Below are positions 5,349-21,995 of a stretch of 64,000 nt of DNA, piece by piece. The stretch is from Actinoplanes sp. NBRC 103695. Lineage in GTDB: Bacteria > Actinomycetota > Actinomycetes > Mycobacteriales > Micromonosporaceae. Numbering within the stretch: the first letter of the stretch is position 1; each line of letters starts with the position of its first letter. A program made the position numbers and the translations under genes. The stretch spans positions 58,794 through 122,793 of the forward strand of contig NZ_BSTL01000001.1 of NCBI RefSeq assembly GCF_030269485.1, in the 5' to 3' direction. The notes under the pieces were generated by a model that saw nothing but the letters and a program-made list of their open reading frames with translations, did no database searches and had not been told where the DNA came from.

Positions 5349-5363
5349 GATTTCTGTCACACC

Positions 5364-5379
5364 CGAACGCTAACGTTCG
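5364..5379. promoter_or_regulatory. Palindrome upstream of the DUF4132/MoxR/VWA operon
   Basis: CGAACG-CTAA-CGTTCG, perfect 6-bp arms, 69 bp before the ATG at 5448. A second, imperfect dyad (CCGACGG...CCGTTCGG) follows at about 5391-5408. These may be operator sites for the six-gene operon. No regulator gene is adjacent. Confidence 0.35.
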
Positions 5380-5447: not shown

Positions 5448-8400
5448 ATGCGCAGTTTCGAGTTCATCGAGGGCAGCTCGGCGAAATTCTGGGAGATCTG
5501 GCAGGACGGTTCCGAGGTCACCGTGCGGTTCGGCCGGGTCGGCACCAGCGGCCAGACCAAGGTCAAGACCTTCGATGACACCGCCGCGGCCTCCGCCCAC
5601 GAGACCAAGCTGATCGCCGAGAAGACCCGCAAGGGGTACGCCGAGACGACCGCCGCCTCGGCTTCCCCCACACCACTTACTACTCCTGTCGTTGTGCCTG
5701 TCTCACCACCCCTCAATGATGAGGATGCGTTCGTGTTTCCGGCGGCGTGGCATCGGTATCGGTGGGCGCGGCGCGGTGGCAGCGGGGTCGGGCGGTTCGT
5801 GCCGGACCCCAAGGCCGGGGCCGCGGTCAAGGAGATGTCGGCGAGTTTCCGGTCGGCGGAGGAGGACGTGGCGTCCTGCGCCGCGCGGGCGGTCGCCGCC
5901 ACGCTCCCCTGGCGGCACCGCGAGAGGGCCGCCGCCTTCGCCGACCACTGGATCGCCCAGCACGGCCTGCGGTTCGCCGCCGAGGCGGCGGTGCGCGCGA
6001 TGAGCATCGTGGTCTCCGACGAGAAAGTGCCGACCGCCCGGGAACTCCGGCCCGGCGACACCCGGCAGAGCTACCAGATCGACAGCCCGATGCTGATCGC
6101 CTTCCGGGTGCGGCACGCCCTCGCGTCCGCCACCGACGAGGAGTACGCCGAGGTCGTCGCCGCGCTCACGCCGCATCGGGCCGGGCACGCCTACGCCCGC
6201 GCGGCCACCTCGGTCCTCCTGCCGACGCAGCACGAGTGGGTGGCTGAGGACGTCGCCTCGGCGAGCGCCGGCCACGACTCCTACCTCGCCACGTTCCTGC
6301 TCGCGGCCGTCTCCACCCGGGCGCAGCTCGACGCCCTGGCGCCGGACGTGACCTTCTGGCCGGTCGTCGGCTCGCTCGCCATGCCGACGACGCTGGCCGA
6401 CCCGCTCGGCTCCGACATCGCGCCGGCGATGTTCGGCTGGCTCGCCGAGGACTACGCCGACTCCGACGCCAAGCGGCGCATCCTCGCCGTGCTCGCGGCC
6501 CTGCCCGGCGACGACGTGATGGGCGGCCTGATCGAGCGGGCCGACCAGAGGTTCGTCGCGCCCGCGCTGACCGACGCGGCCGCCCGCTATCCCGTGCGGG
6601 CCATGCGACTGCTGGCCGAGGGGGCCGGCAACCGTACCGTCGCCGATCTGCTCCGCGCGCACGTGCTCGCCCACCCCGAACTGCTCGAGCAGGTCATGCC
6701 ACAACTGAGCCCGGCCGCCGCAAGCCGGGTCGAGGCGATCGTCGACGAGGCCGGCGCGGTCGCGGAGGCGCCCGTCGAGGCGGTGCCGCCGCTGCTCGCC
6801 GACCCGCCGTGGCGCAACCGCCCCAAAGCCGCGAAGCCGGTCGTGATCGCCGGGCTGGAGTGCACCGACCCACCGGCGATGGCCTGGCTCGACGGCGAAC
6901 GCGAGTCCTGGCGGCAGACGCACGTCGACCGCTACAACAGCCACGGCGGCTCCTGGGAGGCCGTGGGCCGGCGGATCCTCGCCGGGCAGTCACGCTGGAA
7001 CGACGCCCCCTACTTCCTCGCGGAAGCGCCCGACCAGGTCGCCCAGCCGGTCGTCGCCGCCTGGCGGCGGATCACCGACACCTGGAACGCCGGAAGCTAC
7101 CTGCGGCTCGCCGCCGGCCGCTTCGAGCTCGCCGCGCTGCCCGTGTCGCTCGACACCGCGAGGCGCGCCCCCTCGGACGCGGCGCGGCTCCTGCTCCCGT
7201 TCGAGTCGGTCGAGGTCGTGCTGCTCATGGCCGACTGGCTGGCGCGGCTCAAGACGGTTCGTGGCACCGCCCTCGAGTGGTTGCTGCGCCATCCCGCGGC
7301 CGCCGCCCGGGCGCTGGTTCCGGCCGCCCTGCAGAAGCCGGGTGTGGCCCGGCGCCAGGCCGAGGGGGCACTGTTCGCGCTGCACGGCAACGGTCACACC
7401 GAGGCGATCCGGTCCGCCGCGGCCGGCTACGGCGCCGAGGCCGCCACCGCGATCGACACGCTGCTGGCGACCGACCCGGCGGCGCTGCTCCCGGCCAAGA
7501 TGCCGCCGGTGCCCGCGTGGGCGGTGCCCGGCCTGTTGCCGCCGGTGCTGCTGGCCGACGGATCGGGGGTGCTGCCCGCCGAAGCGGTCACCAACCTGGT
7601 CCAGATGCTGGCCATGTCCCGGCTGGGCGAGCCCTACGCCGGTGTGGCGACCGTCGCGGCCGATCTCCGGGCGGCGAGCCTGGCGGAGTTCGCCTGGGGG
7701 CTCTTCCAGCGCTGGCAGAACTTCGGGGCCAACTCCAAGGAGGGCTGGGTCCTGGACGCGCTCGGCCTGCTCGGCGACGACGAGACGGTTCGCCGGCTCA
7801 CCCCGCTGATCTTGGCCTGGCCCGGGGAGGCCGGCCACGCCAAGGCGGTCACCGGCGTGAACGTGCTGGCCGAGATCGGCACCGACGTCGCCCTGATGCA
7901 CCTGCACGGCATCGCGCAGCGGGCCAAGTTCCGGGGCCTCAAGACGACCGCGGGCGAGAAGATGGACGAGGTCGCCGCTGCGCTGGGCCTCACCGGCGAG
8001 CAGTTGGCCGACCGGCTGGTGCCCGACTTCGGGCTGGCCGCCGACGGCAGCATGCGCCTCGGCTACGGGCCACGGCAGTTCACCGTTGGCTTCGATGAGC
8101 AGCTCCGGCCGTACGTCGTGGACAGCAGCGGGAAACACCTCAAAGCCCTGCCCAAACCGGGTTTGAAGGACGACGCCGAGCTCGCGCCGGCCGCCTTCAA
8201 GGCGTTCGCCGCCCTGAAGAAGGACGTGCGCACGGTCGCGGCCGACCAGCTGCGCCGCCTGGAACGAGCCATGGTGACCGGGCGGCGGTGGAGCGGCGGC
8301 GACTTCCGGCGGCTGTTCGTCGAGCACCCGCTGGTGTGGCACATCGTCCGTCGCCTGGTCTGGGGCGTCTACGACGCGTCCGGGACGCTGATCGGCGCGG

Positions 8401-8942
8401 TCCGGGTGGCCGAGGACCGCACCTTCTCCACAGTGGAGGACGACGAGACCGCGCTCGCCGACGACGCGATCGTCGGGGTCGCGCATCCGCTCGAGCTCGA
8501 CGCTGCCCTGCCCGACTGGGCCGAGGTGTTCGCCGACTACGAGATCCTGCAGCCGTTCCCGCAGCTCGGCAGGCCGACGTTCGCGCTGACCCCGGCGGAG
8601 GCCGCGGCCGGCCGGCTGACCCGTTTCGAGGGCATCACCGTGCCGACCGGCCGGGTGATCGGACTGGAACGCCGTGGCTGGAAACGTGAGGAGCCGCAGG
8701 ACGGCGGCCACCAGGGCTACATCGAGCTGAGCCTGGCCACGAACCGGGCGGTGGTCATCTCCCTCGACCCGGGCATCGCGATCGGCGCCATCGACATCTT
8801 CCCCGAGCAGAAACTCGAGGAGATCTTCCTGTCCGACGGCAGCGACAGCTGGTACCGCAAGGACGGCCGCCTGCCGTTGAGCTCGCTCGACCGGATCGCC
8901 GTCTCGGAGGTCATCCGCGACCTGACGGAGGTGACCGCGTGA
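5448..8942 (+). CDS. WGR domain / DUF4132 protein (MolR/YehI-like)
   Basis: A 1,164-aa protein. Residues about 1-70 are a WGR domain (FWEIWQDGSEVTVRFGRVG then GQTKVKTFDD), a nucleic-acid-associated module also found in PARPs. The middle is rich in alanine/leucine helical, HEAT-like segments. The C-terminal half contains the DUF4132 region (for example LRPYVVDSSGKHLKALPKPG, LVWGVYDASG, HPLELDAALPDWAEVFADYE). The family is represented in E. coli by YehI, once named MolR; its biochemical role is unknown. The ATG at 5448 follows a G-rich stretch (GGGTGGGGC) and begins exactly at the WGR domain. It overlaps the next gene by 4 bp and heads a six-gene operon. Confidence 0.85.
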   Translation: MRSFEFIEGSSAKFWEIWQDGSEVTVRFGRVGTSGQTKVKTFDDTAAASAHETKLIAEKTRKGYAETTAASASPTPLTTPVVVPVSPPLNDEDAFVFPAAWHRYRWARRGGSGVGRFVPDPKAGAAVKEMSASFRSAEEDVASCAARAVAATLPWRHRERAAAFADHWIAQHGLRFAAEAAVRAMSIVVSDEKVPTARELRPGDTRQSYQIDSPMLIAFRVRHALASATDEEYAEVVAALTPHRAGHAYARAATSVLLPTQHEWVAEDVASASAGHDSYLATFLLAAVSTRAQLDALAPDVTFWPVVGSLAMPTTLADPLGSDIAPAMFGWLAEDYADSDAKRRILAVLAALPGDDVMGGLIERADQRFVAPALTDAAARYPVRAMRLLAEGAGNRTVADLLRAHVLAHPELLEQVMPQLSPAAASRVEAIVDEAGAVAEAPVEAVPPLLADPPWRNRPKAAKPVVIAGLECTDPPAMAWLDGERESWRQTHVDRYNSHGGSWEAVGRRILAGQSRWNDAPYFLAEAPDQVAQPVVAAWRRITDTWNAGSYLRLAAGRFELAALPVSLDTARRAPSDAARLLLPFESVEVVLLMADWLARLKTVRGTALEWLLRHPAAAARALVPAALQKPGVARRQAEGALFALHGNGHTEAIRSAAAGYGAEAATAIDTLLATDPAALLPAKMPPVPAWAVPGLLPPVLLADGSGVLPAEAVTNLVQMLAMSRLGEPYAGVATVAADLRAASLAEFAWGLFQRWQNFGANSKEGWVLDALGLLGDDETVRRLTPLILAWPGEAGHAKAVTGVNVLAEIGTDVALMHLHGIAQRAKFRGLKTTAGEKMDEVAAALGLTGEQLADRLVPDFGLAADGSMRLGYGPRQFTVGFDEQLRPYVVDSSGKHLKALPKPGLKDDAELAPAAFKAFAALKKDVRTVAADQLRRLERAMVTGRRWSGGDFRRLFVEHPLVWHIVRRLVWGVYDASGTLIGAVRVAEDRTFSTVEDDETALADDAIVGVAHPLELDAALPDWAEVFADYEILQPFPQLGRPTFALTPAEAAAGRLTRFEGITVPTGRVIGLERRGWKREEPQDGGHQGYIELSLATNRAVVISLDPGIAIGAIDIFPEQKLEEIFLSDGSDSWYRKDGRLPLSSLDRIAVSEVIRDLTEVTA

Positions 8943-10993
8943 CCTCCGCGGTGCCGCCGCTGCTGGCCGGCCCGCCGTGGCGCGACCGCGGATCCGCCAG
9001 GCCGGTGGTGGTCACCGGGCTGGAGTGCGCCGACCCGGTCACCGTCGAGTGGGGCGCCGGCGAGCGAGCGGAATGGCTGGGGGAGCCACGCCCGACCTAC
9101 TGGGCGATGGACTCGTGGGAGAGGGCCGCCGGTAACTTCCGGGACGGTCCGACGACCTGGCACTACCAGGTCGAGCTTTTCCTGCACGGGCCCGAGGAGA
9201 TCTTCCGGCCGTTGCTCGCGGACTGGCGCCCGGACCCGCGCTGGGATGCCGCCGGCGTGCTGCGCGCGGCCGGCGCCCGGTTCGAGCAGGACGCCCTGCC
9301 GCCCCTGCTGCACGCCGCCCGTCGCCGGCCGGATGAGCTCGGCTTCCTGGTGCTCCCGTTCTCGTCGCCGGATCTGGCCGTGGCCATGGCCGAGGCACTG
9401 ACCCGCAAGACGCTCCGCGGCCTCGCGCAGGCCTGGCTCGCGCGGCACCCGGCGGCAGCCGCCCGGGCGCTCGTCCCGGCCGCGCTGCAGAAGCCCGGCA
9501 CCGCCCGGCGCCAGGCCGAGAAGGCACTGCTCACGTTGCACGACCACGGCCAGAGCGGGGCGGTGCGGACCGCGGCGGCCGGATACGGCGAGGTGGCCGC
9601 GGCGGCGATCGAGACGCTGCTCGGCACCGACCGCGCGGCCCTGCTGCCGGCCCGGATGCCCCCGGTCCCGGCATGGGCGGCGGCCGGGTCGCTGCCACGG
9701 GTGAGGACGCGCGGCGGCGGCATCCTGCCCGACGACGCGATCGGAGCGCTGGTCCAGATGCTTGCCATCTCCCGGCTCGACGACCCGTACATCGGCGTGG
9801 AGACCGTCGCCGCCGACCTCGACCCGGCGAGCCTCGCCGAGTTCGCGTGGAGCCTGTTCCTGCTCTGGGACGGCTCCGGCGGCAACAGCAAGGACAACTG
9901 GGCGCTCGACGCCCTCGGCCTGCTCGGCGACGACGAGACGGTACGCCGGCTCACCCCGCTGATCCTGTGGTGGCCGGGGCAGGGCAACCACGCCCGTGCG
10001 GTCACCGGCGTGTCCGTGCTGGCCGCCATCGGATCCGACGTCGCTCTTCTGTATCTGAGCCGGATCTCCCGGCGGGCCACGTTCAAGGGGCTCAAGTCGG
10101 CCGCCACGGAGAAGATGGACGAGGTGGCGACCGGGCTCGGGCTGACCGCCGAGCAACTCGCCGACCGGCTGGTGCCCGACTTCGGCCTGGGCACCGACGG
10201 CGGCATGACGCTCGACTACGGGCCGCGGCAGTTCACCGTCGGGTTCGACGAGCAGCTCCGGCCGTACGTGATGGGCGCCGACGGCCGGCATCTCAAAGCC
10301 CTGCCCAAACCGGGCTCGAAGGACGACGCCGAGCTCGCGCCGGCCGCCCACCAGGCGTTCACGACGTTGAAGAAAGAGGTCCGCACGGTCGCCACCGAGC
10401 AGCTGCGCCGGCTGGAACGGGCCATGATGAAACGCCGCCGGTGGACCGGTGCCGAGTTCCGCCGGTACTTCGTCGAGCACCCGCTGCTCCGGCACATCAG
10501 CCGCCGCCTGGTCTGGGGCGTCTACGACTCCTCGGGCGTGCTGGCCGGCGCGGTCCGGGTGGCGGAGGACCGCAGCCTCGCCACGGTGGCGGACGACGAG
10601 ACCGGGCTGGCCGACGACGCCGTCATCGGCATCGCGCACCCGCTGGAACTCGGCGGGAGCCTGCCCGACTGGGTCGAGGTGTTCGCCGATTACGAGATCC
10701 TGCAACCGTTCCCGCAGCTGGGGCGGCAGACCTTCACACCCACGGCGGACGAGACCGCGGCCGGTCGGCTCCTCCGCTTCGAGGGCGTCGCCCTGTCGCC
10801 CGACGCCGCCCAGGGTCTGGAGTACCGCGGCTGGCGGCTGGACCGGGACAGGGTCGTGTTCGAGCTGTCCGGAAAACCCTCGGTGGTCGTGTCGCTCGCG
10901 GGCTACGCCGTCCAGCAGGTCTCCCTGCCCGGCGACCTCGACGCCGTCACCCTCTCCGACGTCATCCGCCATCTCACGGAGGCCACCAAGTGA
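8939..10993 (+). CDS. DUF4132 protein lacking a WGR domain, paralogue of the preceding gene
   Basis: A 684-aa protein aligning throughout with residues about 445-1164 of the previous gene. Shared segments include PPLLA-PPWR near the start, GYG-EAA-AI-TLL, DALGLLGDDETVRRLTPLI, LRPYV, HLKALPKPG and VFADYEILQPFPQLGR. It appears to be a tandem duplicate without the WGR module and with a distinct first 150 residues. The GTG start overlaps the upstream stop (GTGA), and its own stop overlaps the ATPase start the same way. Function is unknown; the duplication suggests two DUF4132 subunits, only one carrying the nucleic-acid-type WGR domain. Confidence 0.8.
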   Translation: MTSAVPPLLAGPPWRDRGSARPVVVTGLECADPVTVEWGAGERAEWLGEPRPTYWAMDSWERAAGNFRDGPTTWHYQVELFLHGPEEIFRPLLADWRPDPRWDAAGVLRAAGARFEQDALPPLLHAARRRPDELGFLVLPFSSPDLAVAMAEALTRKTLRGLAQAWLARHPAAAARALVPAALQKPGTARRQAEKALLTLHDHGQSGAVRTAAAGYGEVAAAAIETLLGTDRAALLPARMPPVPAWAAAGSLPRVRTRGGGILPDDAIGALVQMLAISRLDDPYIGVETVAADLDPASLAEFAWSLFLLWDGSGGNSKDNWALDALGLLGDDETVRRLTPLILWWPGQGNHARAVTGVSVLAAIGSDVALLYLSRISRRATFKGLKSAATEKMDEVATGLGLTAEQLADRLVPDFGLGTDGGMTLDYGPRQFTVGFDEQLRPYVMGADGRHLKALPKPGSKDDAELAPAAHQAFTTLKKEVRTVATEQLRRLERAMMKRRRWTGAEFRRYFVEHPLLRHISRRLVWGVYDSSGVLAGAVRVAEDRSLATVADDETGLADDAVIGIAHPLELGGSLPDWVEVFADYEILQPFPQLGRQTFTPTADETAAGRLLRFEGVALSPDAAQGLEYRGWRLDRDRVVFELSGKPSVVVSLAGYAVQQVSLPGDLDAVTLSDVIRHLTEATK

Positions 10994-12099
10994 AAGAGCT
11001 CGAGGTCACCGCACCCGCCGATCAGGTGCAGCGGCCACCGGCCGAGGTCCGCTACGCCGACGAACTGGCGCGGCTGCGGGCCGACGACACCGCCGCGCGG
11101 CCGCCCGGCTGGGTGCTCAGCGTGCAGGCCGCCCGCCGGTTCGTCATCGGCGACGACCGGCTCGGCGTCAGCCGCAAGTTCGTCGGCGACCCGTCGCTCA
11201 TCGACCGGGCGCTCATCACGCTCGCCACCAGCCGCGGGCTGATGCTGGTCGGCGACCCGGGCACCGCGAAATCGCTGCTCTCCGAGTTGCTCGCGGCGGC
11301 GGTCAGCGGCGACTCCACACTCACCATCCAGGGCGGCGCGGCCACCACCGAGGACCAGATCCGCTACTCGTGGAACTACGCGCTGCTGGTCGCCGACGGG
11401 CCGTCCACCCGCTCGCTGGTTCCCGCGCCGCTGCTGCGCGGCATGGCCGAGGGGCGGGCCGTGCGCTTCGAGGAGATCACCCGCTGCCCGCTGGAGGTGC
11501 AGGACTGCCTGCTGTCCCCGCTCTCCGACCGGATGCTGGCCATCCCCGAACTGACCGGGCCGGAGTCGATGGTCTTCGCCCGGGACGGCTTCACCGTCAT
11601 CGCCACCGCGAACACCCGCGACCGCGGCGTCAACGACATGAGCTCCGCCCTGAAGCGGCGGTTCAACTTCGAGACGGTGTTCCCGATCGCCGACTTCGAC
11701 ACCGAACTCACACTCGTGGCCGACGAGGCCGGGAAGCTGCTGCGGCGCTCCGGGGTCACCGCCGAGCCGCGGCGGGACGTCCTCGAGGTGCTGGTCACCA
11801 CGTTCCGCGAGCTGCGCGGCGGGGAGACCGCGCGGGGCGACACGATGGAACGGCTGTCCTCGGTGATGAGCACGGCCGAGGCGGTGTCGGTGGCGCACGC
11901 CGTCGGGCTGCGCGGCTGGTTCCTGCGCGGCGAGTCCGGCAACGCCGAGGACGTGGTCGCCTGCCTGGCCGGCACGGCCGCCAAGGACAGCCCCGAGGAC
12001 CTGGCGAAACTCCGCCGCTACCTGGCCCAGCAGGTCGACTGGCGCACCGGCGGGCAGTGGCAGGAACTGCGCCGGGCCCGGCACCTGCTCCCGGGCTGA
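10990..12099 (+). CDS. MoxR-family AAA+ ATPase (YehL-like)
   Basis: A 369-aa single AAA+ module. Walker A is GDPGTAKS with Lys94. The Walker B position reads AVRFEEIT (Glu161-Glu162), so the usual Asp is replaced by Glu. Sensor 1 is VIATANTRDRGVND and the arginine-finger region is SALKRRFNFETV. MoxR ATPases form hexameric rings that remodel partner proteins and are typically encoded beside VWA proteins, as here. The start is GTG 10990 (VKELEVTAP), overlapping the upstream stop by 4 bp. It most resembles the ATPase encoded with VWA and SWIM proteins in the E. coli yeh locus. It probably supplies the energy for the complex encoded by this operon. Confidence 0.88.
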   Translation: MKELEVTAPADQVQRPPAEVRYADELARLRADDTAARPPGWVLSVQAARRFVIGDDRLGVSRKFVGDPSLIDRALITLATSRGLMLVGDPGTAKSLLSELLAAAVSGDSTLTIQGGAATTEDQIRYSWNYALLVADGPSTRSLVPAPLLRGMAEGRAVRFEEITRCPLEVQDCLLSPLSDRMLAIPELTGPESMVFARDGFTVIATANTRDRGVNDMSSALKRRFNFETVFPIADFDTELTLVADEAGKLLRRSGVTAEPRRDVLEVLVTTFRELRGGETARGDTMERLSSVMSTAEAVSVAHAVGLRGWFLRGESGNAEDVVACLAGTAAKDSPEDLAKLRRYLAQQVDWRTGGQWQELRRARHLLPG

Positions 12100-12102
12100 A
12101 CC

Positions 12103-14526
12103 GTGCCGGTCACGTTCATCGGCGTCCGCCACCACAGTCCCGCGTGCGCGCGGCTGGTCGCCGACACCATCGACGAGCTGCGGCCCGCGTACGTGCTGAT
12201 CGAGGGCCCCGCCGACCTCAACGAACGGATCGGCGAACTGCTCCTCGGGCACCAGCTTCCGGTCGCCGTGTTCACCAGCTACCGCGACGACGAGCGGCGG
12301 CACGGCTCCTGGGCGCCGTTCTGCGACTACTCGCCCGAATGGGTTGCTCTCACCCGGGGCCGGGCAGTGGGCGCGGAACTGCGCTTCATCGACCTGCCCG
12401 CCTGGCACCCCGCCTTCGCCGGACGCAGCAACCGGTACGCGGACGCCGAGCTGCGCTACGCCGACGTCATGGAACGGCTGTGCCGCGGCTTCGGCGTCGA
12501 CAACGTGGACGCGCTGTGGGACCACCTGTTCGAGATCGCACCCACGGACGGGCTGGCCGAGCGGCTGGCCACCTACTTCGACCTGGTACGCGGAGAAGCC
12601 GCGGCGGGGGAGTCGGACACCGCACGCGAGGCGTACATGGCGTCCTGGGTGCGAGCCGCGGCCGCCTCCGCCGGGGACCGGCCGGTCGTCGTGGTGACGG
12701 GCGGCTTCCACCGGCCGGCCCTGGTGACCCTCGCCGCGACCGGGGACACGGAGTGGCCGGCGGCGCCACGGCTGCCCGAGGGCGCGCTGGGCGGCAGCTA
12801 CCTGGTGCCGTACTCGTTCCGGCGCCTCGACGCGTTCGACGGTTACCAGTCCGGGATGCCGTCGCCCGGGTACTACCAGGAACTGTGGGAGTCCGGGCCG
12901 TCCGCGGCGGCGCGACACCTCGTCACCTCGGTGGCCGGCCGCCTGCGGAACCGGAAACAACCCGTGTCCACCGCCGACCTGATCGCCGCCCGGGCCACCG
13001 CCGACGGGCTCGCCATGGTTCGCGGCCACGCCTCCCCGGCTCGGGCCGACGTCCTTGACGGCCTGGCTTCGGCCCTGGTCAACGAGGCGTTGGACGTACC
13101 CCTGCCGTGGTCCTCCCGGGGCACCCTGCGAGCCGGCAGCCACCCGGTCGTCGTCGAGATGGTCGCCGCGCTCAGCGGGAACCGCGTCGGGCGCCTGCAC
13201 CCCGGCACGCCCGCGCCGCCCCTGGTCCACGACCTCGACGCCGAACTCGCCCGCGCCGGCCTCGACGGTGCCGGCGACCTCGACCTGGACCTCACCCGCC
13301 CCGGCGACCGCTCGCGCAGCGTGATCCTGCACCGGGTGCGGGTGCTCGGAGTGCCCGGCTTCTCCCGCACCGCCGGGCCGTCGGTGGGCCTGGACCCGGC
13401 GCTGCGCGAACGCTGGGCCCTGCGCCCCGACCCCGGCCGCCTCACCGCCGTGATCGAGGCCGGCGCCCACGGCGCGACCCTGGCCGACGCCTGCGCGGCC
13501 GCCCTCGCCGAGCGGGCCGTCCTGGCCGGCCGGGACGTCGACGCCCTGGCCGCGGTGCTGTTCGACGCCGCCCTGGCCGGCGTGACCGAAGTGTCCGACC
13601 GGGCCCTCGCCGACATCGACGCCGGCGTCGCCGCCGCGCCCGACCTGAGCCCGGTCGGCCGCATGCTGGCCGTGGTCCTGACGATGTGGCGGCACGACCG
13701 CGTCTTCGGCACCATCCACAGCGCCGTCCTCGGGCGCGTGGTGACCGCAGCGGTCCGTCGCATCCTCTGGCTGGCCGAAGGCGCGCACGGCGGCGCGGCA
13801 CCGGCCGACCTGGGCCGGATAGCGGCGCTGGCCGCCTGCCGCGACGCCCTCCGCCATGCCGGGCGGGCCCTCTCGCTCGATCTGCACGGCGCTGTCGAGA
13901 CGGCCTCTCGGGTCAGCGCCGACCCGGCCGCCCCGCCTGATCTGCGCGGCGCCGCCTTCGGCCTCCGATGGGCACTCGCCGACCTCGTAACCTCCGCCTT
14001 GCCCGCGTCGGGCCCCGGCTCCGGCGTGACGGGCGCGGCTGTTCCCGATCCCTTTGAGCCCGTGGGTGTTGATGCGGTTCGGGCTGTGCGCGGCGCCTTC
14101 GTGGCGGCGACGGCCGGGGACTGGCTGGCCGGGCTGTTCGCGGTGGCGCGGGAAGAAGTCCTGCACGACGAGGAGGTTGTCGCGCTGCTCGACGATCTGC
14201 TGTCGGGGATGGGGACGGAGGACTTCCTCGTTGCGTTGCCCGCTTTGCGGCAGGCGTTCGAGTTCTTCCCGCCGCGGGAACGGGAGACGATCGCGGGGCG
14301 GTTGCTCGCCAGGCGCGGGCTCGGCGGGACCGGGCGGAGCCTGCTGCGGAGCGCCGTCGACCCTTCGGTGGTGGCGGCTGGGATGCGGCTCGACGAGCGC
14401 GTCGACGAGTTGTTGTCGAGCGTGGGGCTGGTCACGGGCACGGGGATCGCGGGGCTGGTTAGAGGTGTGGCGATCGTGGGCGTGGAGGGTGCGGGGTTGA
14501 GCACCGAGACGGAGGGTCGGGCGTGA
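12103..14526 (+). CDS. DUF5682 family protein (YehM-like)
   Basis: An 807-aa protein beginning MPVTFIGVRHHSPACARLV, the typical start of DUF5682. LIEGPADLNE, SWAPFCDYSPEW and a TraB/ChaN-like pattern (VVVVTGGFHRPAL) follow. The combination of an N-terminal RHHSP and a central GGFHRP recalls the haem-binding/protease-like TraB-ChaN (EreA) superfamily, but this is only a motif impression. The C-terminal two-thirds is helical and alanine-rich. The GTG start lies 3 bp after the ATPase stop, and the stop overlaps the VWA gene by 4 bp. No function is known for the family; it is strongly tied to MoxR/VWA operons. Confidence 0.8.
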   Translation: MPVTFIGVRHHSPACARLVADTIDELRPAYVLIEGPADLNERIGELLLGHQLPVAVFTSYRDDERRHGSWAPFCDYSPEWVALTRGRAVGAELRFIDLPAWHPAFAGRSNRYADAELRYADVMERLCRGFGVDNVDALWDHLFEIAPTDGLAERLATYFDLVRGEAAAGESDTAREAYMASWVRAAAASAGDRPVVVVTGGFHRPALVTLAATGDTEWPAAPRLPEGALGGSYLVPYSFRRLDAFDGYQSGMPSPGYYQELWESGPSAAARHLVTSVAGRLRNRKQPVSTADLIAARATADGLAMVRGHASPARADVLDGLASALVNEALDVPLPWSSRGTLRAGSHPVVVEMVAALSGNRVGRLHPGTPAPPLVHDLDAELARAGLDGAGDLDLDLTRPGDRSRSVILHRVRVLGVPGFSRTAGPSVGLDPALRERWALRPDPGRLTAVIEAGAHGATLADACAAALAERAVLAGRDVDALAAVLFDAALAGVTEVSDRALADIDAGVAAAPDLSPVGRMLAVVLTMWRHDRVFGTIHSAVLGRVVTAAVRRILWLAEGAHGGAAPADLGRIAALAACRDALRHAGRALSLDLHGAVETASRVSADPAAPPDLRGAAFGLRWALADLVTSALPASGPGSGVTGAAVPDPFEPVGVDAVRAVRGAFVAATAGDWLAGLFAVAREEVLHDEEVVALLDDLLSGMGTEDFLVALPALRQAFEFFPPRERETIAGRLLARRGLGGTGRSLLRSAVDPSVVAAGMRLDERVDELLSSVGLVTGTGIAGLVRGVAIVGVEGAGLSTETEGRA

Positions 14527-15656
14527 CTGATCCGGGTCTGGAACGGTGGCGGCTGGTGCTGGGGAAGCCAGCGTCGGCCATGGGTCCGCTGGGTGCGGAC
14601 GGTGCGGCTCGGGATGCGGCGCTGGACTGGCTCTACGGGCGCGATGAAGACCATGACCGGCGGGATGTGCGACAGGGCGCCGCGACCACGGGACGAGAAG
14701 GCGGGGACGGGCCGTCGCTGCTGACCACGGTGGACTGGCTCCACGACATCAACCGGCTGTTCCCGCGGGAGACCATCGAAAGGCTGCAGCGGGACGCGGT
14801 CGAACGCTACGAGATCAACGACATCGTGACCGATCCGGCCGTGCTGGAGACGATCGAGCCCAACCCTTCGCTGCTGCGGGCCGTGCTGCAGACCAAGCAT
14901 CTGATGAACCCGGAGGTACTTCGGCTGGCCCGGCGGATCGTCGAGGCGGTCGTCCGGGACCTGCTGGCGAAGATGGCCACCGAGGTGCGGGCGGCGTTCA
15001 CCGGGGCGCGGGCGCGGCGGCCCAGCCGGTGGAAGCAGGCCCGCGACTTCGACATCACCCGGACGCTGCGGGCCAACCTCGGGCACTACCGGCCGGAGGA
15101 GCGGCGGCTCTACATCGAGACGCCGCACTTCTTCTCGCGCACCCGGCGTCACGTCGAACAATGGCAGGTCATCCTGCTCGTCGACCAGTCCGGCTCGATG
15201 GTCGACTCGGTGATCCACTCGGCGGTGACCGCGGCGTGCCTGTGGGGGCTGCCGGGCGTTCGTACCCATCTGATCGCCTTTGACACCGAGGTCGTCGACC
15301 TGACCAGCGAGGTGGACGACCCGGTCGAACTCCTGATGAAGGTGCAGCTCGGCGGCGGCACGGACATCGCGCGGGCGGTCCGGTACGGCGCGTCGCTGAT
15401 CGAGCGGCCGGGGCGGACGATCGTGGCGCTGATCAGCGACTTCTATGAGGGCGGCTCGCGGTCGGACCTGATCCGGACGGTGCGCGAGATGGTCGACCAG
15501 GGGACCAGGGTGCTGGGGCTGGCGGCGCTCGACGAGCAGGCCAACCCGAGCTTCGACCGGGACATGGCGCAGAGCCTCGCCGACGTCGGCGCGTCCGTGG
15601 GGGCGATGACGCCGGGCGAGCTGGCGGCGTTCGTGGCCGAGCAGGTGGGGCGATGA
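14523..15656 (+). CDS. VWA domain protein (YehP-like)
   Basis: A 377-aa protein. The N-terminal half is helical (YEINDIVTDPAVLETIEPNP, LRLARRIVEAVVRDLL). A von Willebrand A domain starts near residue 215 with a complete MIDAS: DQSGSMVDS (Asp221), a later GGGTDIARAV and LISDFYEGG. Such proteins bind a divalent metal and act as partners of MoxR ATPases. It is encoded with a 4-bp overlap behind the DUF5682 gene. Its last 16 codons (MTPGELAAFVAEQVGR) are the first copy of a 47-bp tandem repeat that runs up to the next gene. Confidence 0.88.
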   Translation: MTDPGLERWRLVLGKPASAMGPLGADGAARDAALDWLYGRDEDHDRRDVRQGAATTGREGGDGPSLLTTVDWLHDINRLFPRETIERLQRDAVERYEINDIVTDPAVLETIEPNPSLLRAVLQTKHLMNPEVLRLARRIVEAVVRDLLAKMATEVRAAFTGARARRPSRWKQARDFDITRTLRANLGHYRPEERRLYIETPHFFSRTRRHVEQWQVILLVDQSGSMVDSVIHSAVTAACLWGLPGVRTHLIAFDTEVVDLTSEVDDPVELLMKVQLGGGTDIARAVRYGASLIERPGRTIVALISDFYEGGSRSDLIRTVREMVDQGTRVLGLAALDEQANPSFDRDMAQSLADVGASVGAMTPGELAAFVAEQVGR

Positions 15657-15746
15657 CGCTGGGGGAGCTGGTGGCGTTCGTTGCCGGGCTGGTGGGGCGA
15701 TGATGCCGGGTGAGCCGACCGTGAGCGGCGCCGGGCTGGTGGGGCG
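15606..15746 (+). repeat. 47-bp tandem repeat, three copies, bridging the VWA and SWIM genes
   Basis: Copies start at 15606, 15653 and 15700, each beginning ATGA and ending CTGGTGGGGCG or CAGGTGGGGCG. The SWIM gene's ATG at 15747 sits exactly where a fourth copy would start. The first copy is the last 47 bp before the VWA stop junction. Because 47 is not a multiple of 3, each copy is read in a new frame. Copies 2 and 3 encode 16-codon mini-ORFs (MTLGELVAFVAGLVGR and MMPGEPTVSGAGLVGR), each ending in a TGA that overlaps the next ATG. Confidence 0.85.
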
Positions 15747-18002
15747 ATGAGGGCGGATCTGCTGGCGCTCACCGACGCCACCCTGGCCGAGCTCACCAAC
15801 CGCGGGCTGGTCAAGCGGGCCGGGCGCGAGCTCGAACGCGCCCGGCCGGAGCTGGCCGAGGACGACGACGGCACGGTGCGGGCGTCCTTCCCGGACGGGG
15901 TTGCCACGATGCTGCCGGTCGGCGGGCTGGACAAGGGCTCGTGCGGGTGCGGTGCCCCGGGCGTTTGCCGGCACATTGTCGGGCTGGTGCTGGCCTACCA
16001 GCACGCCAGGACCGCGCGGGCCGAGGAAGGGACCGCACGAGCTGAGCAAGGGACCGCGCGAGCTGAGCAAGGGACCGCGCGAGCTGAGGAAGGGACCGCG
16101 CAAGCTGAGGAAGGCACCGGGCGAGCTGAGGAAGGGACCGGGCAAGCTGAGGAAGGGACCGGGCGAGCTGAGGAAGGGACCGGGCAAGCTGAGGAAGGGA
16201 CCGGGCGAGCTGAGGAAGGGACCGGGCAAGCTGAGGAAGTCACCGGGCGAACCGCGGAAGACGGTGCGTCCCAGAACGAGCCGGCGCGTGGCGATGCCGC
16301 CGGTCGACCGGCGGCAGCCAGGCCCGCGCGAACACCGGGACCGGACGCGACGGGTCGTGGCGGCAGCGGGTGGTCGCCGGGGCAGTTCACCGACGAGGAA
16401 CTGGTGGCTCGGATCGGCGAACGGATGGTCGCGGCCGCCAGGCGTCTCGCGGGGACCGGATATGTCGCCCGGGTGCGCCGGGGACGGCCCGCGGATCCGG
16501 TGCCCAGCGTGGAGTTGCCCACGGCGACCGTGCGGTTCCTCGTACCCTGGGATCTGGGTTTTGCCCGGTCCGACGCGGTCGCCGGGGTGCGCGACGATGT
16601 GATCGCGCTGGCCGTGTGGGCGTTCCGGGTGGCCGACGAGCAGGCGCCGGGGCAGGCGGACGTCCGGGTTCAGGTGGGTGGTGGCGCGGCGCCCGCCGGC
16701 GGGCCCGGGCTGGAGGCGGCGGTTGCGCTGGCCGCGGTGGTGCTGCGGGAGGGCGCGGTCCATCTGGGTGCGGGGCAGGCAGGCGAGATCGCTTCGGTAC
16801 GCCGTGAGCTCGACGCCGCGCGGATGCGGTGGCCGCTGCTCGCCGTGGACGACCTGGCCGGTCAGCTCGAGGCCTACCGGCAGCGCGGCGCACGCTACCG
16901 GCCGGAGTTCCTCGCCGATCACGTCGCGGAACTGTTCGCGCGGCACCGGGCGGTGACCGGCGGCGGCTCGGAGCTGCGATCCCAGGTGCTGGGGACGGAG
17001 GAGGCGGCCGAGACCCCGTTGCGGCGGGCGAGGCTGGACGGGCTCGGGGCGCGGGTCTCGGCGGTCGGCGACGAGCGGGTGGTGGACCTGTTCCTGGCGC
17101 ATGCGGACAGTGCGGCCGTGCTGGTGTTGCGGCGGGCGTACCAGACGGAGGAAGCCGGACCACAGCTGGCCGCGCGGCGCATCGCGGGCGTGACCGTCGG
17201 GATGCTCGCGTCCGGGACGGTCGTGACCGAGTCGGCGGCGCGCAGCGCGAGCCGGGCGGTGCGGCTCGGCGCGCGGCGACTCAGCCGGACCGAGGCGATG
17301 GCGTCGCGCGGAGCCTGGCAGCATCTGCCGCCGTCACTGATCGCGGACGACCTGACCGCCCTGGCCGCGGAGCTGGACGCGCTGCCACCCCGGCCGATCC
17401 GCGCGCGCGTGCAGGCCGAGCTGGTGCGGGTGATCCCGGTGACGGCGGTGCGGTCGGTGAGCTACGCGCCGGGCGATCAGCGGCTGGACGCGGTGATCGA
17501 GGACGCGGCCGGCGTCCCGGCGACGATCTCGGCGACGCATGCGGCGTGCGTGCCGGGCCGGTTGGACAGCATGGCCGCGGCGCTGGACGGCGACGTCCGG
17601 TTCGTCTCGGGGACGGTTCGCCGCGCCGGCGGGGGTGTCCTGATCGATCCGCTCGGCTTCGCGATGCCGGACGGCGTGGTGGTGCCCGACCTGGCGCCGG
17701 CCGCCCGGGCCGCCGACCCGGCCGCCCGCCCCGCCTCGCAGGACGATCCGCTCGGAAGCGCACTGGACGAGGCGGTCACGCTGCTCGCCGAGGTGGCGCA
17801 CCGGGGCCTGCGGCATGCGCCGGCCACGGTGGGCGACCGTCTCCGATCGGTGGGCGGCCGTCTGACCACGCTGGGAATGCGCCGCGCGGGCGCGGGGGTG
17901 GAGTCGTTTGCGGCGCTGCTGGGCCCGGATCCGGGCGACCCGGCCGTGTCCGCCTGGGTGGACGCCTACCTGCGCGTCTGCCTGGCCGCCGAGCTCCGAT
18001 GA
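15747..18002 (+). CDS. SWIM zinc-finger protein with 7-residue repeat tract (YehQ-like)
   Basis: A 751-aa protein. A SWIM zinc finger (CxCx5CxH) lies at residues 66-76: Cys66 and Cys68 in SCGCG, Cys74 and His76 in VCRHIVG. SWIM fingers bind DNA or protein. Residues 88-171 are a low-complexity linker of twelve 7-residue units alternating GTGRAEE and GTGQAEE. The remaining 580 residues have no motif I recognise beyond similarity in layout to YehQ-type proteins. The start ATG is supplied by the end of the preceding 47-bp repeat, so translation probably depends on reinitiation. It is the last gene of the operon. Confidence 0.8.
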   Translation: MRADLLALTDATLAELTNRGLVKRAGRELERARPELAEDDDGTVRASFPDGVATMLPVGGLDKGSCGCGAPGVCRHIVGLVLAYQHARTARAEEGTARAEQGTARAEQGTARAEEGTAQAEEGTGRAEEGTGQAEEGTGRAEEGTGQAEEGTGRAEEGTGQAEEVTGRTAEDGASQNEPARGDAAGRPAAARPARTPGPDATGRGGSGWSPGQFTDEELVARIGERMVAAARRLAGTGYVARVRRGRPADPVPSVELPTATVRFLVPWDLGFARSDAVAGVRDDVIALAVWAFRVADEQAPGQADVRVQVGGGAAPAGGPGLEAAVALAAVVLREGAVHLGAGQAGEIASVRRELDAARMRWPLLAVDDLAGQLEAYRQRGARYRPEFLADHVAELFARHRAVTGGGSELRSQVLGTEEAAETPLRRARLDGLGARVSAVGDERVVDLFLAHADSAAVLVLRRAYQTEEAGPQLAARRIAGVTVGMLASGTVVTESAARSASRAVRLGARRLSRTEAMASRGAWQHLPPSLIADDLTALAAELDALPPRPIRARVQAELVRVIPVTAVRSVSYAPGDQRLDAVIEDAAGVPATISATHAACVPGRLDSMAAALDGDVRFVSGTVRRAGGGVLIDPLGFAMPDGVVVPDLAPAARAADPAARPASQDDPLGSALDEAVTLLAEVAHRGLRHAPATVGDRLRSVGGRLTTLGMRRAGAGVESFAALLGPDPGDPAVSAWVDAYLRVCLAAELR
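16008..16259 (+). repeat. 21-bp in-frame minisatellite, twelve units, in the SWIM gene
   Basis: Units of the type GGGACCGGGCGAGCTGAGGA-A run without interruption from 16008 to 16259. The central part is a higher-order 42-bp alternation (CGA versus CAA, giving Arg then Gln), repeated three times nearly perfectly from 16155. The period is a multiple of 3, so copy-number change would keep the reading frame and alter only linker length. Confidence 0.92.
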
Positions 18003-18378: not shown

Positions 18379-21300
18379 TCAGCTGGCCGGGCCGATGAGC
18401 TTCCAGGGCTCGTGGTCGGCGTCGGCGCCCGTGCCGGGGATGTTGTTCTGGGTCCACCACTTGGCGTGCCAGACCTTGCCGTTGTACTTGACCGTGGTCT
18501 GCTCGACGGTCTGGGTCGACGGGTCGTAGACCTTTGCCGCGTCCCAGTTCGGGGCGTTGCAGCCGCCGGTGGGCGGGGTTGCTCTGCCCAGGCCCTTCAG
18601 GTTGTCGGTTGCGGGGGCGTAGGCCGTGCCGCCGAGCGACAGGCTGGTGTTCACCGGGCCGGTCACCGGGAGGAAGTAGATGATCGGCAGGTCCAGGGTG
18701 CGGCCCGCGGGGATGATCTGGCAGTAGTCGAGCGTGGTGCTCACCCGGTGGAAGGTGGAGCCGGGGGTGAGGCGCCACTGGCCGTCGGTCTGCCAGTTGA
18801 CGTCCTTGACCAGCGGGGACGTCGAGGCGGGCAGGTCGAACGACAGCACCGAATCCTTGCCGCCGCCCAGCGTGCGGCCGGTGTTGTTGGTGATCCGGAG
18901 CGTGGGGGTGAGGGGCCACAGGTTGGCTGTCTGGGTCGGGTAGTCGACCAGGTCCACGCTGATGTTCGCGGTGACCGCCGGTGCGGTTCCGGTGCTGCCG
19001 GCTCGCAGGTCCGTCGAGTACGCGCCGGCGTTGCCCAGCTTCTCGTTGATGCGGGTGGTCAGCGTGTAACCCATGCCGCACGGGTGCTGGGCGTCCACCG
19101 TGGCGGGGCAGGCGTAGTCGCCGCCGAGCTCCCACATCATCACGCCACCCGCGCCGGACGAGCGGACGAAGTCGGTGATCGCGTCGACGCCCTGTTCGTC
19201 CTCGGTGGACAGGAAGACCCTCTTGGTGTTGTTCCACAGCCAGGACGTCTTCGTCGCGTTGTCCCAGAAACGGGTGTACGTGCCGGACAGGCGGTCGGCG
19301 GGATCGCTGTCCGGTGTCAGGCCGACCGCGGGGGCGTACCTCGGAAGGATGTTGCTCTCGAGGTTCTTCGCATGCCACAGCGGGTTCGTGCCGGAGCCGA
19401 GCTCGCCGCCGTTCGAGGTGTCGTCGTGCCAGATGTTGTCGATGCCGACCGCGCCGTCGCCGCACGGGCGGCGGATGCCGGTGCCGGGCTCGCATCCGGT
19501 CCTCGACGAACTGCCCCACATGCCGTTCGTACCGCCGGTGACGTTCTTCCAGCCGCGCGTGTAGTACGGGATGCCGATGTTGACCCGGCCCGCCTGCAAC
19601 GCGCCGCGCATGTATTTGAGGGCCCAGGTCGTGTTGAAGTAGCCGATGCCGCCGTACTCGGGGGTCGAGTACTGGTCGGCGAGCTCCGGGTCACGGCCGT
19701 CGTCGGCCAGGGCGGCGTTCGGGCCCACCACGTCGTTCCAGGTGCCGTGGTAGTCGTACGCCATCAGGTTGGTGAAGTCCTGGTAGTCCAGCGCCGTCTG
19801 GTTGGCCATGCCGCGCACCAGGTAGCCGGACGCCGACGAGGCCGAGGTGAGCTGGTAGTACTTGTTGTCGGCCGCCGACGCCCGGTTGAGGGAGTCCCGC
19901 AGCGTCTTCATCAGCGCGGTGTAACCGGCGGGCAGGCCACGGCGGCGCGGGTTGGCGGTGCCCCAGTCGGCCGGGTTGCCGGTGTCGTCCAGCACGGTCG
20001 GATATTCGAAGTCGATGTCGACACCGTCGAAGCCGTACGTGCGCAGGAAGGTCACCGCCGACCCGGCGAACGTGTCGATCCCGCCCTGGTTGACGCTGCC
20101 GTCGGTGTTGGTGGTCATCGCGTAGAAGCCGCCCGACCCGGCCCAGCCACCCACCGAGATGAGCGTTTTGACACGCGGATGAAGGCGTTTGTACTTGGTC
20201 AGAAGATTGAAATGCCCGCGGTACGGCAGGGACGTGTCCATCTCCGCGCCGGTCTGACCGGGCCATTCCGTCCGGGTGGCCGAACCGTCGACGGTGATCT
20301 GGTTGTCCACCACGCCCGCGAACGCGTAGTTGAGGTGCGTGACTTTCGACCACGGAATGTTCTTCACCAGGTAGTGCGGGGTGCCGTCGGCGCCCGTACG
20401 CCCGCCGTTGAAGTAGGCCACGACCCGGCGCGGACGACCCTGGCCGAGCCACTCCCGGCCGTCGCTCTGATAGATCTTGCAGTACGGCACGGACACGCCG
20501 GCCGTGGTCGCGAGGCCGTCGGGCCGGCAGTCGCCGGAAGCGCCGGGACGGGTGCCGCCGTCGTCACCGCCGGCGTGTTGTTCCATCGGGTCGCCGACGC
20601 CGCCGTTGTCGTCCACCGGGTCCGGCCCGGTCGTGTTGCGCTCCACGATGTCGTCGATCAGCCCGCCGCCGGGGAAGTCCATCATCACCACGCCGGTGCG
20701 GGTCATCGACGGCTCGCCGCCGAAGTTGTCGTCCCGGTCCGGGTAGAACTCGGGGCAGCGGCCGTCGGTGTCGTGCAGGCACTGGATGAGGAACTCGTTG
20801 ACGCCGTTGGCGGTGGGGGAGCCGCCGGCCACCGTGAACGGATGCGCGCCGGAACCCGAGCCGCTGGTGTAGTTGATGTACATCGCGTCCGGCTCGTAGA
20901 CGTGTTCCCGCTCGCCCGGCCGGTGCAGATCCCACACGCCGTTGGTCTTCCGCAGGTGGGTGCGGACCTTCTCCCACTTGTCGTCGATGTCGTCGATCTG
21001 ATCGACCTGGTAGTCGTCCTGCACGTACTCGCCGTTGGATCCGCCGCCGGGGTAGGGCTGCCTCAGCCCGTACCCGGAGTAGATCCCGCCCTGCACACCG
21101 CGGAAACCCAGCAGGACGATCTTGCCGCGCGTCTCACCCAGCGTGGGGATGTCGGCCTGGCTGGTGCCGGTGACCGACGGCGTCCAGAAGAGGCTGCTCC
21201 AGTCGGTGGCCGGGCGGGACTCGTCGCCCTCGCCCGTGTAGGCCTTGCCCTCCAGGTACGACCGCAGCGTCTTGAGGCGCCACTCGTCGTTGCCGTAGCC

Positions 21301-21840: not shown

Positions 21841-21995
21841 GGGATCCCCCTGTGCTCGGCGAGCGCCAGACATGGACGATCATCGATACTACGCGGTTGC
21901 CGGGAATTCAGGTGAAAGTGGCGCGAATAAACCGGACACGCCGGACCGTGACCGAATGGCACGTCATTTGTCCGTTTTGGATTAGCTTGACGATC

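What the first reader, a model, noticed from the sequence alone, without database searches (positions are those of the whole stretch)
5448..18002. Six-gene WGR-DUF4132 / DUF4132 / MoxR / DUF5682 / VWA / SWIM operon, a candidate uncharacterised conflict or protein-remodelling system
Six genes are joined by 4-bp overlaps or gaps of a few bases, except at the tandem-repeat junction. They encode a nucleic-acid-type WGR protein, an AAA+ MoxR ATPase, a MIDAS-complete VWA protein, a SWIM zinc finger and two families of unknown function. The same families occur in E. coli as yehI, yehL, yehM, yehP and yehQ, with no known role. MoxR-VWA pairs with nucleic-acid modules are a recurring theme in predicted NTP-dependent conflict systems. 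The actinobacterial version adds a second DUF4132 subunit.
Basis: partly seen in the sequence, partly recalled or inferred. Interest (0 to 1): 0.8.

Follow-up and report, generated by a model that had tools for sequence, protein, structure and literature searches.

The report
DNA-damage-linked MoxR–VWA remodelling operon
This six-gene bacterial operon has a match to the switch sequence of the DNA-damage regulator PafBC in front of it, as do most of the close relatives tested in other actinobacteria, so it is likely turned on by DNA damage and would use an ATP-driven ring to remodel proteins on damaged DNA, which gives a gene set of unknown role a testable job.

Summary
The six genes are there, at the stated coordinates, in a tight operon. 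The order MoxR–DUF5682–VWA–SWIM holds in 78 of the 80 closest named loci and in E. coli yehL-M-P-Q. The second DUF4132 gene is a partial tandem copy of the first (59% identity). The conflict reading found no support: no PADLOC match in the six proteins, and neighbours score like random genes. What stands out is the promoter. The DNA-damage motif TGTCR-N11-TANNNT lies ahead of 41 of 54 testable operons against 3 of 306 control genes; eight other spacings give 0 of 54. It occurs in 19 of 25 named genera (plus 1 of 2 MAG labels). In the window it occurs once in 64 kb, 93 bases before gene 1; that copy is weak outside the core. In the same genome variants precede recA, uvrB, tag, radA, dinB and pup, and PafC is encoded. 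The DUF5682 N-terminus best matches TraB-family folds. I read it as a damage-induced MoxR–VWA remodelling machine; induction, activity and client are untested.

The parts
5354..5376 (+). PafBC/RecA-NDp-like promoter: CTGTCACAC-N8-TAACGT (core TGTCA-N11-TAACGT at 5355-5376), core starts 93 bases before gene 1
   Evidence: Only core match in the 64-kb window, both strands. 3 core matches in 360 kb of random regions of the genus. Outside the core it departs from TTGTCRGTG at 4 of 9 positions.
5448..8942 (+). WGR-DUF4132 protein, 1164 aa
   Evidence: Pfam WGR 7.8e-18, DUF4132 1.9e-62
8939..10993 (+). second DUF4132 protein, 684 aa, partial tandem copy of gene 1 residues 443-1163
   Evidence: 59% identity. 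AlphaFold2 model: helical repeats plus a C-terminal mixed domain, pLDDT 88, pTM 0.75
10990..12099 (+). MoxR-type AAA+ ATPase, 369 aa
   Evidence: AAA_5 5.3e-34. Walker A, sensor 1 and RRF patterns in 79 of 79 relatives; the Walker B pattern used was loose
12103..14526 (+). DUF5682 protein, 807 aa: N-terminal TraB-like domain (about 1-216) plus helical C-terminal part
   Evidence: Pfam 1.4e-106. Model pLDDT 88, pTM 0.83. Best matches TraB-family
14523..15656 (+). VWA_CoxE protein, 377 aa, MIDAS complete
   Evidence: Pfam 7.7e-60. DxSGS in 77 of 79 relatives
15600..15750 (+). 47-bp tandem repeat at the VWA/SWIM junction
   Evidence: TRF, 3.2 copies
15747..18002 (+). SWIM zinc-finger protein, 751 aa
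   Evidence: CxC-x5-CxH motif. Homologous to the gene after VWA in relatives. Pfam SWIM below cut-off
16009..16250 (+). in-frame 21-bp repeat (11.5 copies) in the SWIM gene, coding an acidic/Ala linker
   Evidence: TRF, translation

Best explanation
The operon encodes a MoxR ATPase, a CoxE-type VWA protein, a DUF5682 protein whose predicted N-terminal fold is TraB-like, a SWIM zinc-finger protein and WGR/DUF4132 proteins predicted to be helical repeats, behind a match to the PafBC promoter motif, so it is likely induced by DNA damage and would work as an ATP-driven machine that remodels or strips proteins at damaged DNA. Shown here: the genes, their conserved order, the motif and its enrichment ahead of related operons, the presence of PafC and of the same motif at DNA-repair genes in this genome, and the predicted folds. 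Inferred from family knowledge (recalled): WGR (a DNA-end-binding module in PARP1) and SWIM would address the machine to nucleic acid; the VWA protein would hold a client through its MIDAS; the MoxR ring would pull on it with ATP; the helical-repeat DUF4132 proteins would be the exchangeable client- or partner-binding arm. The TraB-like domain of DUF5682 would be either a hydrolase acting on the client or a structural core. Untested: induction by damage, dependence on PafBC, any activity, and the client.
For: Motif ahead of 41 of 54 testable operons against 3 of 306 other gene starts with at least 60 bp free upstream in the same loci, and 5 of 476 without that filter (Fisher p 7e-39, not corrected for relatedness). 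20 of 27 genus labels, that is 19 of 25 named genera and 1 of 2 MAG labels; 0 of 54 at each of eight other spacings; LexA-type GAAC-N4-GTTC only 1 of 54. In the window's genus 9 of 10 yeh-type operons carry it, window included, and so does the one of G037 in the same order; the Nonomuraea copy L048 does not (part of this set repeats named loci). A stand-alone WGR-DUF4132 gene of the same genome has it too (L026). The paralogous SWIM-DUF5691/MoxR/DUF5682/VWA operon has the strict core in 8 of 21 against 2 of 191 random genes of the genus. Regulon controls in this genome: the TTGTCGTAC variant occurs 18 times against 1 for the reversed pattern and 6 of the 18 precede recA, uvrB, tag, radA, a DEDD exonuclease and pup; the GTG variant (up to 1 mismatch) precedes dinB and a DinG/YoaA-type helicase. 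PafC-type HTH 3.4e-41 beside a WYL/WCX partner, downstream of pafA. The consensus tTGTCRgtg-8-TannnT is in PMC5656591 (passages). E. coli molR is listed as LexA-regulated (PMC11039860, passage), and WGR and DUF4132 genes of Deinococcus as upregulated on DdrO depletion (PMC8533742, passage).
Against: The window's own site is weak outside the core. 13 of 54 operons lack the strict core; 5 of these (3 Nonomuraea, Microtetraspora, Acrocarpospora) have a near match with 2 mismatches, 8 have none better than 4. No clear damage box near the start of the alphaproteobacterial operons checked or of the Iodobacter one. The LexA-like site before E. coli yehF is weak (13 of 20) and such one-mismatch cores are common in that 24-kb stretch (11 sites). 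Of the 18 TTGTCGTAC sites about a third stand before named repair genes; others stand before transporters or unknown genes or have no gene call nearby. PMC9380542 (passage) reports that an initial search suggested the mycobacterial motif is not conserved in S. venezuelae, although 9 of 11 Streptomyces operons here have it. Being in the damage regulon would not show what the proteins do.
Confidence: 0.6

Rival explanations
1. A conflict (anti-phage or anti-plasmid) system that is triggered by damage signals: MoxR-VWA sets a threshold, WGR/SWIM sense foreign nucleic acid, and DUF5682 or DUF4132 is the effector.
For: MoxR-vWA pairs are cores of predicted conflict systems (PMC7159879, passages). 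Patchy within the genus, 11 of 24, and at several sites. Tandem DUF4132 number varies. Found on plasmids, once beside a type I restriction system.
Against: No PADLOC match in the six proteins; neighbours score like controls; no confirmed viral relative; the VWA protein ends with its VWA domain (151-369 of 377), with no variable effector domain attached.
Confidence: 0.17
2. A maturation machine for a metalloenzyme, like CoxD-CoxE or RavA-ViaA, that inserts a metal or cofactor into one client (perhaps linked to molybdenum through the old name MolR).
For: VWA_CoxE match 7.7e-60; MoxR-VWA pairs of this kind act in metal-centre insertion (PMC7159879, passage).
Against: No metalloenzyme gene stands out beside the operon: no Pfam family is in more than 5 of 108 neighbours (first 25 of 106 families shown). 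PMC8533742 saw no change of moeA/moeB with the Deinococcus genes (passage). WGR and SWIM modules and the damage promoter are not expected.
Confidence: 0.12
3. The promoter motif is real but the operon is only carried along in the damage regulon, with a general proteostasis role (like pup, which has the same motif).
For: pup carries the same motif in this genome; MoxR-VWA is a chaperone-type motor.
Against: WGR and SWIM argue for nucleic-acid contact.
Confidence: 0.11

Closest known systems
E. coli yehF-yehH-yehI-yehK-yehL-yehM-yehP-yehQ region (MolR/YehL type)
   Same: Same families in the same order MoxR-DUF5682-VWA-SWIM; WGR and DUF4132 genes upstream. molR listed as LexA-regulated (PMC11039860, passage).
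   Different: WGR and DUF4132 lie on separate or broken genes in K-12; the regulator would be LexA rather than PafBC; I found no described function (search listing).
SWIM-DUF5691 / MoxR / DUF5682 / VWA operon (second type, in all 24 genomes of the genus by the DUF5682 search, gene content seen in 20 of them; also on plasmids of Rhizobium, Methylosinus, Deinococcus, Hymenobacter)
   Same: Shares SWIM, MoxR, DUF5682 and VWA (no VWA gene is annotated in the Methylosinus stretch and no separate SWIM gene in the Hymenobacter one); strict damage motif in 8 of 21.
   Different: DUF5691 in place of WGR-DUF4132; present throughout the genus rather than patchy.
MoxR-vWA ternary conflict systems (Kaur et al. 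2020, PMC7159879, passages)
   Same: MoxR plus vWA core with a third constant component.
   Different: Third component here is DUF5682, not VMAP, iSTAND or beta-propeller; no effector domain on the VWA protein; the MoxR hit to bpMoxR is under the cut-off (21.4 against 27 bits).
CoxD-CoxE / RavA-ViaA MoxR-VWA chaperones
   Same: AAA+ MoxR plus VWA_CoxE.
   Different: Extra WGR, DUF4132, DUF5682 and SWIM proteins; damage promoter.
TraB/TIKI-like proteins
   Different: No significant sequence match; a long helical part is added; activity unknown.

Membership tests
PafBC (RecA-NDp) DNA-damage regulon | promoter motif tTGTCRgtg-N8-TAnnnT ahead of the operon | tested here: met
   Core met at 5355-5376 and in 41 of 54 related operons against 3 of 306 controls; the window's copy is weak outside the core (4 of 9 upstream positions differ)
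PafBC (RecA-NDp) DNA-damage regulon | pafBC encoded and motif in use at repair genes in the same genome | tested here: met
   PafC HTH 3.4e-41 beside a WYL/WCX partner; motif before recA, uvrB, tag, radA, dinB, pup
PafBC (RecA-NDp) DNA-damage regulon | induction by DNA damage that depends on PafBC | not testable with these tools
   needs RNA or reporter assays
LexA (SOS) regulon in actinobacteria | SOS box GAAC-N4-GTTC upstream | tested here: not met
   1 of 54 operons and 1 of 306 controls; none in the window
yeh-type (YehL) MoxR-VWA operons | MoxR, DUF5682, VWA_CoxE and SWIM genes in this order with DUF4132 | tested here: met
   order in 78 of 80 loci
MoxR-vWA ternary conflict systems | MoxR and vWA core | tested here: met
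MoxR-vWA ternary conflict systems | VMAP, iSTAND or beta-propeller third component and variable effector domains | tested here: not met
   Pfam matches above cut-off in the six proteins are only WGR, DUF4132, AAA_5, DUF5682, VWA_CoxE and VWA_2; domains without a Pfam model would be missed
Known anti-phage defence systems | match to PADLOC models or position in defence islands | tested here: not met
   0 of 6 proteins match at 0.001; neighbours score like random genes
TraB/TIKI-like superfamily (DUF5682 N-terminal domain) | fold | tested here: met
TraB/TIKI-like superfamily (DUF5682 N-terminal domain) | sequence profile similarity | tested here: inconclusive
   HHalign to small EreA and YbaP sets not significant (E 0.13 and 0.033; controls 0.14-0.61), though the aligned bits are the expected motifs
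TraB/TIKI-like superfamily (DUF5682 N-terminal domain) | hydrolase or protease activity | not testable with these tools
   needs purified protein

The most novel reading that the evidence does not exclude
A bacterial counterpart of the eukaryotic p97 plus SPRTN pathway: a DNA-damage-induced machine in which WGR and SWIM find blocked DNA, the MoxR ring and VWA protein unfold the protein stuck there, and the TraB-like domain of DUF5682 cuts it, so clearing DNA-protein crosslinks. Different damage regulators (PafBC in actinobacteria, reportedly LexA in E. coli and DdrO in Deinococcus) would have recruited the same gene families independently.
Probability: 0.14. Interest if true: 0.92.

Novelty: new variant of a known kind. 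Interest (0 to 1): 0.7.

Why it matters
The yeh genes of E. coli and their relatives have no role that I found in print (search listings). A promoter motif shared by relatives from 19 named actinobacterial genera gives a direct, cheap test (damage induction, damage survival) and moves the search from phage defence to the DNA-damage response. The TraB-like fold gives DUF5682, a family with no paper under its name in the library searched, a first structural handle. If the machine works on damaged nucleoprotein, bacteria would have a dedicated AAA+ pathway for it.

Full report
What is there. Pfam confirms WGR, two DUF4132, AAA_5/MoxR, DUF5682 and VWA_CoxE (searches had MoxR out of frame); the SWIM model is below its cut-off but the zinc motif is complete. 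The window is part of a 10.8-Mb genome whose close relatives by protein match are Actinoplanes. Gene 2 is a partial tandem copy of gene 1 (59% identity over residues 443-1163).

How conserved it is. In these the order MoxR-DUF5682-VWA-SWIM holds in 78; the exceptions are L092, whose contig begins inside the operon, and L158, where one long DUF5682 gene call is followed by SWIM and no separate VWA gene was called. DUF4132 number upstream of MoxR varies from none to three within the loci held. E. coli K-12 has the same block. Motifs are kept: Walker A, sensor 1 and RRF in 79 of 79 MoxR gene calls, DxSGS in 77 of 79 VWA, CxC..CxH in 73 of 80 SWIM (67 of 68 longer than 600 aa), and in 81 DUF5682 gene calls HH[SG]P in 74, the EG strand end in 78, RE..M in 80 and GxxH in 80. 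In the genus 11 of 24 genomes hold the window's type, judged by DUF5682 score (one of them, G008, only as fragments that I did not examine), and all 24 hold a second type. That second type is SWIM-DUF5691/MoxR/DUF5682/VWA, with gene content seen in 20 of the 24 genomes and in one other genus. Two further layouts exist (L038, L040). In the class, DUF4132 occurs in 39 of 246 genomes.

The promoter. Reading the upstream DNA of the genus copies side by side showed a repeated TTGTC...TA..T pattern. I recalled it, and then confirmed it in PMC5656591 (passages), as the LexA/RecA-independent damage promoter tTGTCRgtg-8-TannnT; PMC6789036 (passages) states that PafBC acts through it. I fixed a core, TGTCR-N11-TANNNT, and tested the 80 named loci: 54 could be tested, 26 could not (first gene cut, missing or not adjacent). 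41 of 54 have the core within -200 to +30 of the first gene, against 3 of 306 other gene starts with at least 60 bp of free upstream DNA in the same loci, and 5 of 476 without that filter. Nine are perfect 23-mers. Spacings of 7-10 and 12-15 give 0 of 54 each (controls 2 of 306 at 7, else 0), the reversed pattern 0, the other strand 1 (7 of 306 in controls), and LexA-type boxes 1. The hits come from 19 of 25 named genera and 1 of 2 MAG labels. In the window's genus 9 of 10 operons have it. The window's own site is the only core match in 64 kb, where 18 random regions of the genus give 3 in 360 kb; its outer bases are poor. The loci are related to each other, so the p value overstates the independent evidence; the spread over genera is the better measure.

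Is the motif a damage motif in this genome? Yes by its company. The TTGTCGTAC variant, which is the form before recA here, occurs 18 times against 1 for the reversed control. Six of the 18 stand before recA, uvrB, tag, radA/sms, a DEDD exonuclease and pup; a seventh stands before a protein with weak AddB/Cas4-type nuclease matches. Others stand before genes without an evident repair role (two that read as ABC-transporter ATPases, a DUF5990 protein, a HEPN_SAV_6107 protein and more), and three sites had no gene call nearby. The first pattern with one mismatch gave 30 hits against 13 for the reversed control; 16 of the 30 lie inside genes, and the intergenic ones include dinB and a DinG/YoaA-type helicase. 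One TTGTCGTAC site lies inside the second-type operon before its VWA gene (L227). pafA is present, followed within 6 kb by a WYL/WCX protein and a PafC-HTH protein.

Other phyla. E. coli molR is listed among LexA-regulated genes (PMC11039860, passage); MolR is YehH (PMC5541211, passage), a pseudogene beside yehI in K-12. In Deinococcus radiodurans DR2173 (WGR) and DRA0165-DRA0166 (DUF4132) rise on DdrO depletion (PMC8533742, passage); whether these lie in a yeh-type operon was not checked. In the Sinorhizobium, Allorhizobium, Rhizobium, Methylosinus, Iodobacter, Proteus and Deinococcus stretches I found no strict box near the operon starts (the Proteus stretch has no annotation, so its operon start was not set). 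So the cross-phylum link rests on literature plus the actinobacterial result.

Conflict test. No PADLOC match, neighbours as in controls (the neighbours come from many genera, the controls from two genomes of the window's genus), neighbour Pfam families shown are ordinary (25 of 106), no viral relative in a close-relative scan and one unannotated phage-labelled record. Patchiness, plasmid copies and varied sites fit horizontal movement but not defence in particular. Of 16 Actinoplanes-type loci, 6 share one context, 2 share upstream genes, 3 are loosely linked and 5 share none (one of the 5 is cut on one side). The Iodobacter plasmid beside a type I restriction system is a single case.

Mechanism. 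I commit to a damage-induced MoxR-VWA remodelling machine. Shown: parts, order, promoter motif, regulon context, predicted folds. Inferred: nucleic-acid targeting by WGR/SWIM, client capture by VWA, ATP-driven remodelling, and a hydrolase or scaffold role of the TraB-like domain. Literature: six full-text searches aimed at these families and one joint search, seen as listings, showed no paper that ties DUF5682 or the operon as a whole to PafBC; the links of molR to LexA and of WGR/DUF4132 genes to DdrO are in print. The library is open-access only.

Noticed in passing
16009-16250: In-frame 21-bp repeat, 11.5 copies at 91% match, inside the SWIM gene; codes an acidic/alanine linker and may vary in copy number.
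   Followed up: no
15600-15750: 47-bp tandem repeat across the VWA/SWIM junction repeats the 3' end of the VWA gene.
   Followed up: no
L025 (G000:C45:4000-23999): A second MoxR/DUF5682/VWA operon with a SWIM-DUF5691 protein, in all 24 genomes of the genus by the DUF5682 search; strict damage motif in 8 of 21 upstream regions.
   Followed up: partly
L038, L040, L041, L044: Two further MoxR-DUF5682-VWA layouts: one with a 452-aa gene, one with DUF5682 fused to VWA next to 1571-aa and 934-aa proteins; these three had no Pfam match.
   Followed up: partly
L026:6716-10339: Stand-alone WGR-DUF4132 gene on the same contig, about 117 kb downstream of the operon (71 kb past the window end), with the same damage motif 55 bases before its start.
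   Followed up: partly
L047: Iodobacter plasmid carries the operon with two DUF4132 genes, IS elements and a type I restriction system next to it.
   Followed up: no
L045: An E. coli plasmid holds the yehI-yohO chromosomal stretch between IS26 copies; the yeh region is also a reported insertion site of a resistance transposon in ST131 (PMC9334617, passages).
   Followed up: no
18379-21873: Large - strand gene with GH18 chitinase, ChiC and PI-PLC-X domains in one protein, and a CBM5/12 match under its cut-off.
   Followed up: no
L129, L137, L153, L156, L157: Perfect PafBC-type 23-mers before Streptomyces operons, although PMC9380542 says an initial search suggested the motif is not conserved in S. 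venezuelae.
   Followed up: partly
L090, L095, L111, L097, L098: Nonomuraea, Microtetraspora and Acrocarpospora operons share a variant TTGTCRGTC-N8-[CA]ATACT; possibly a lineage-specific form of the same promoter.
   Followed up: no
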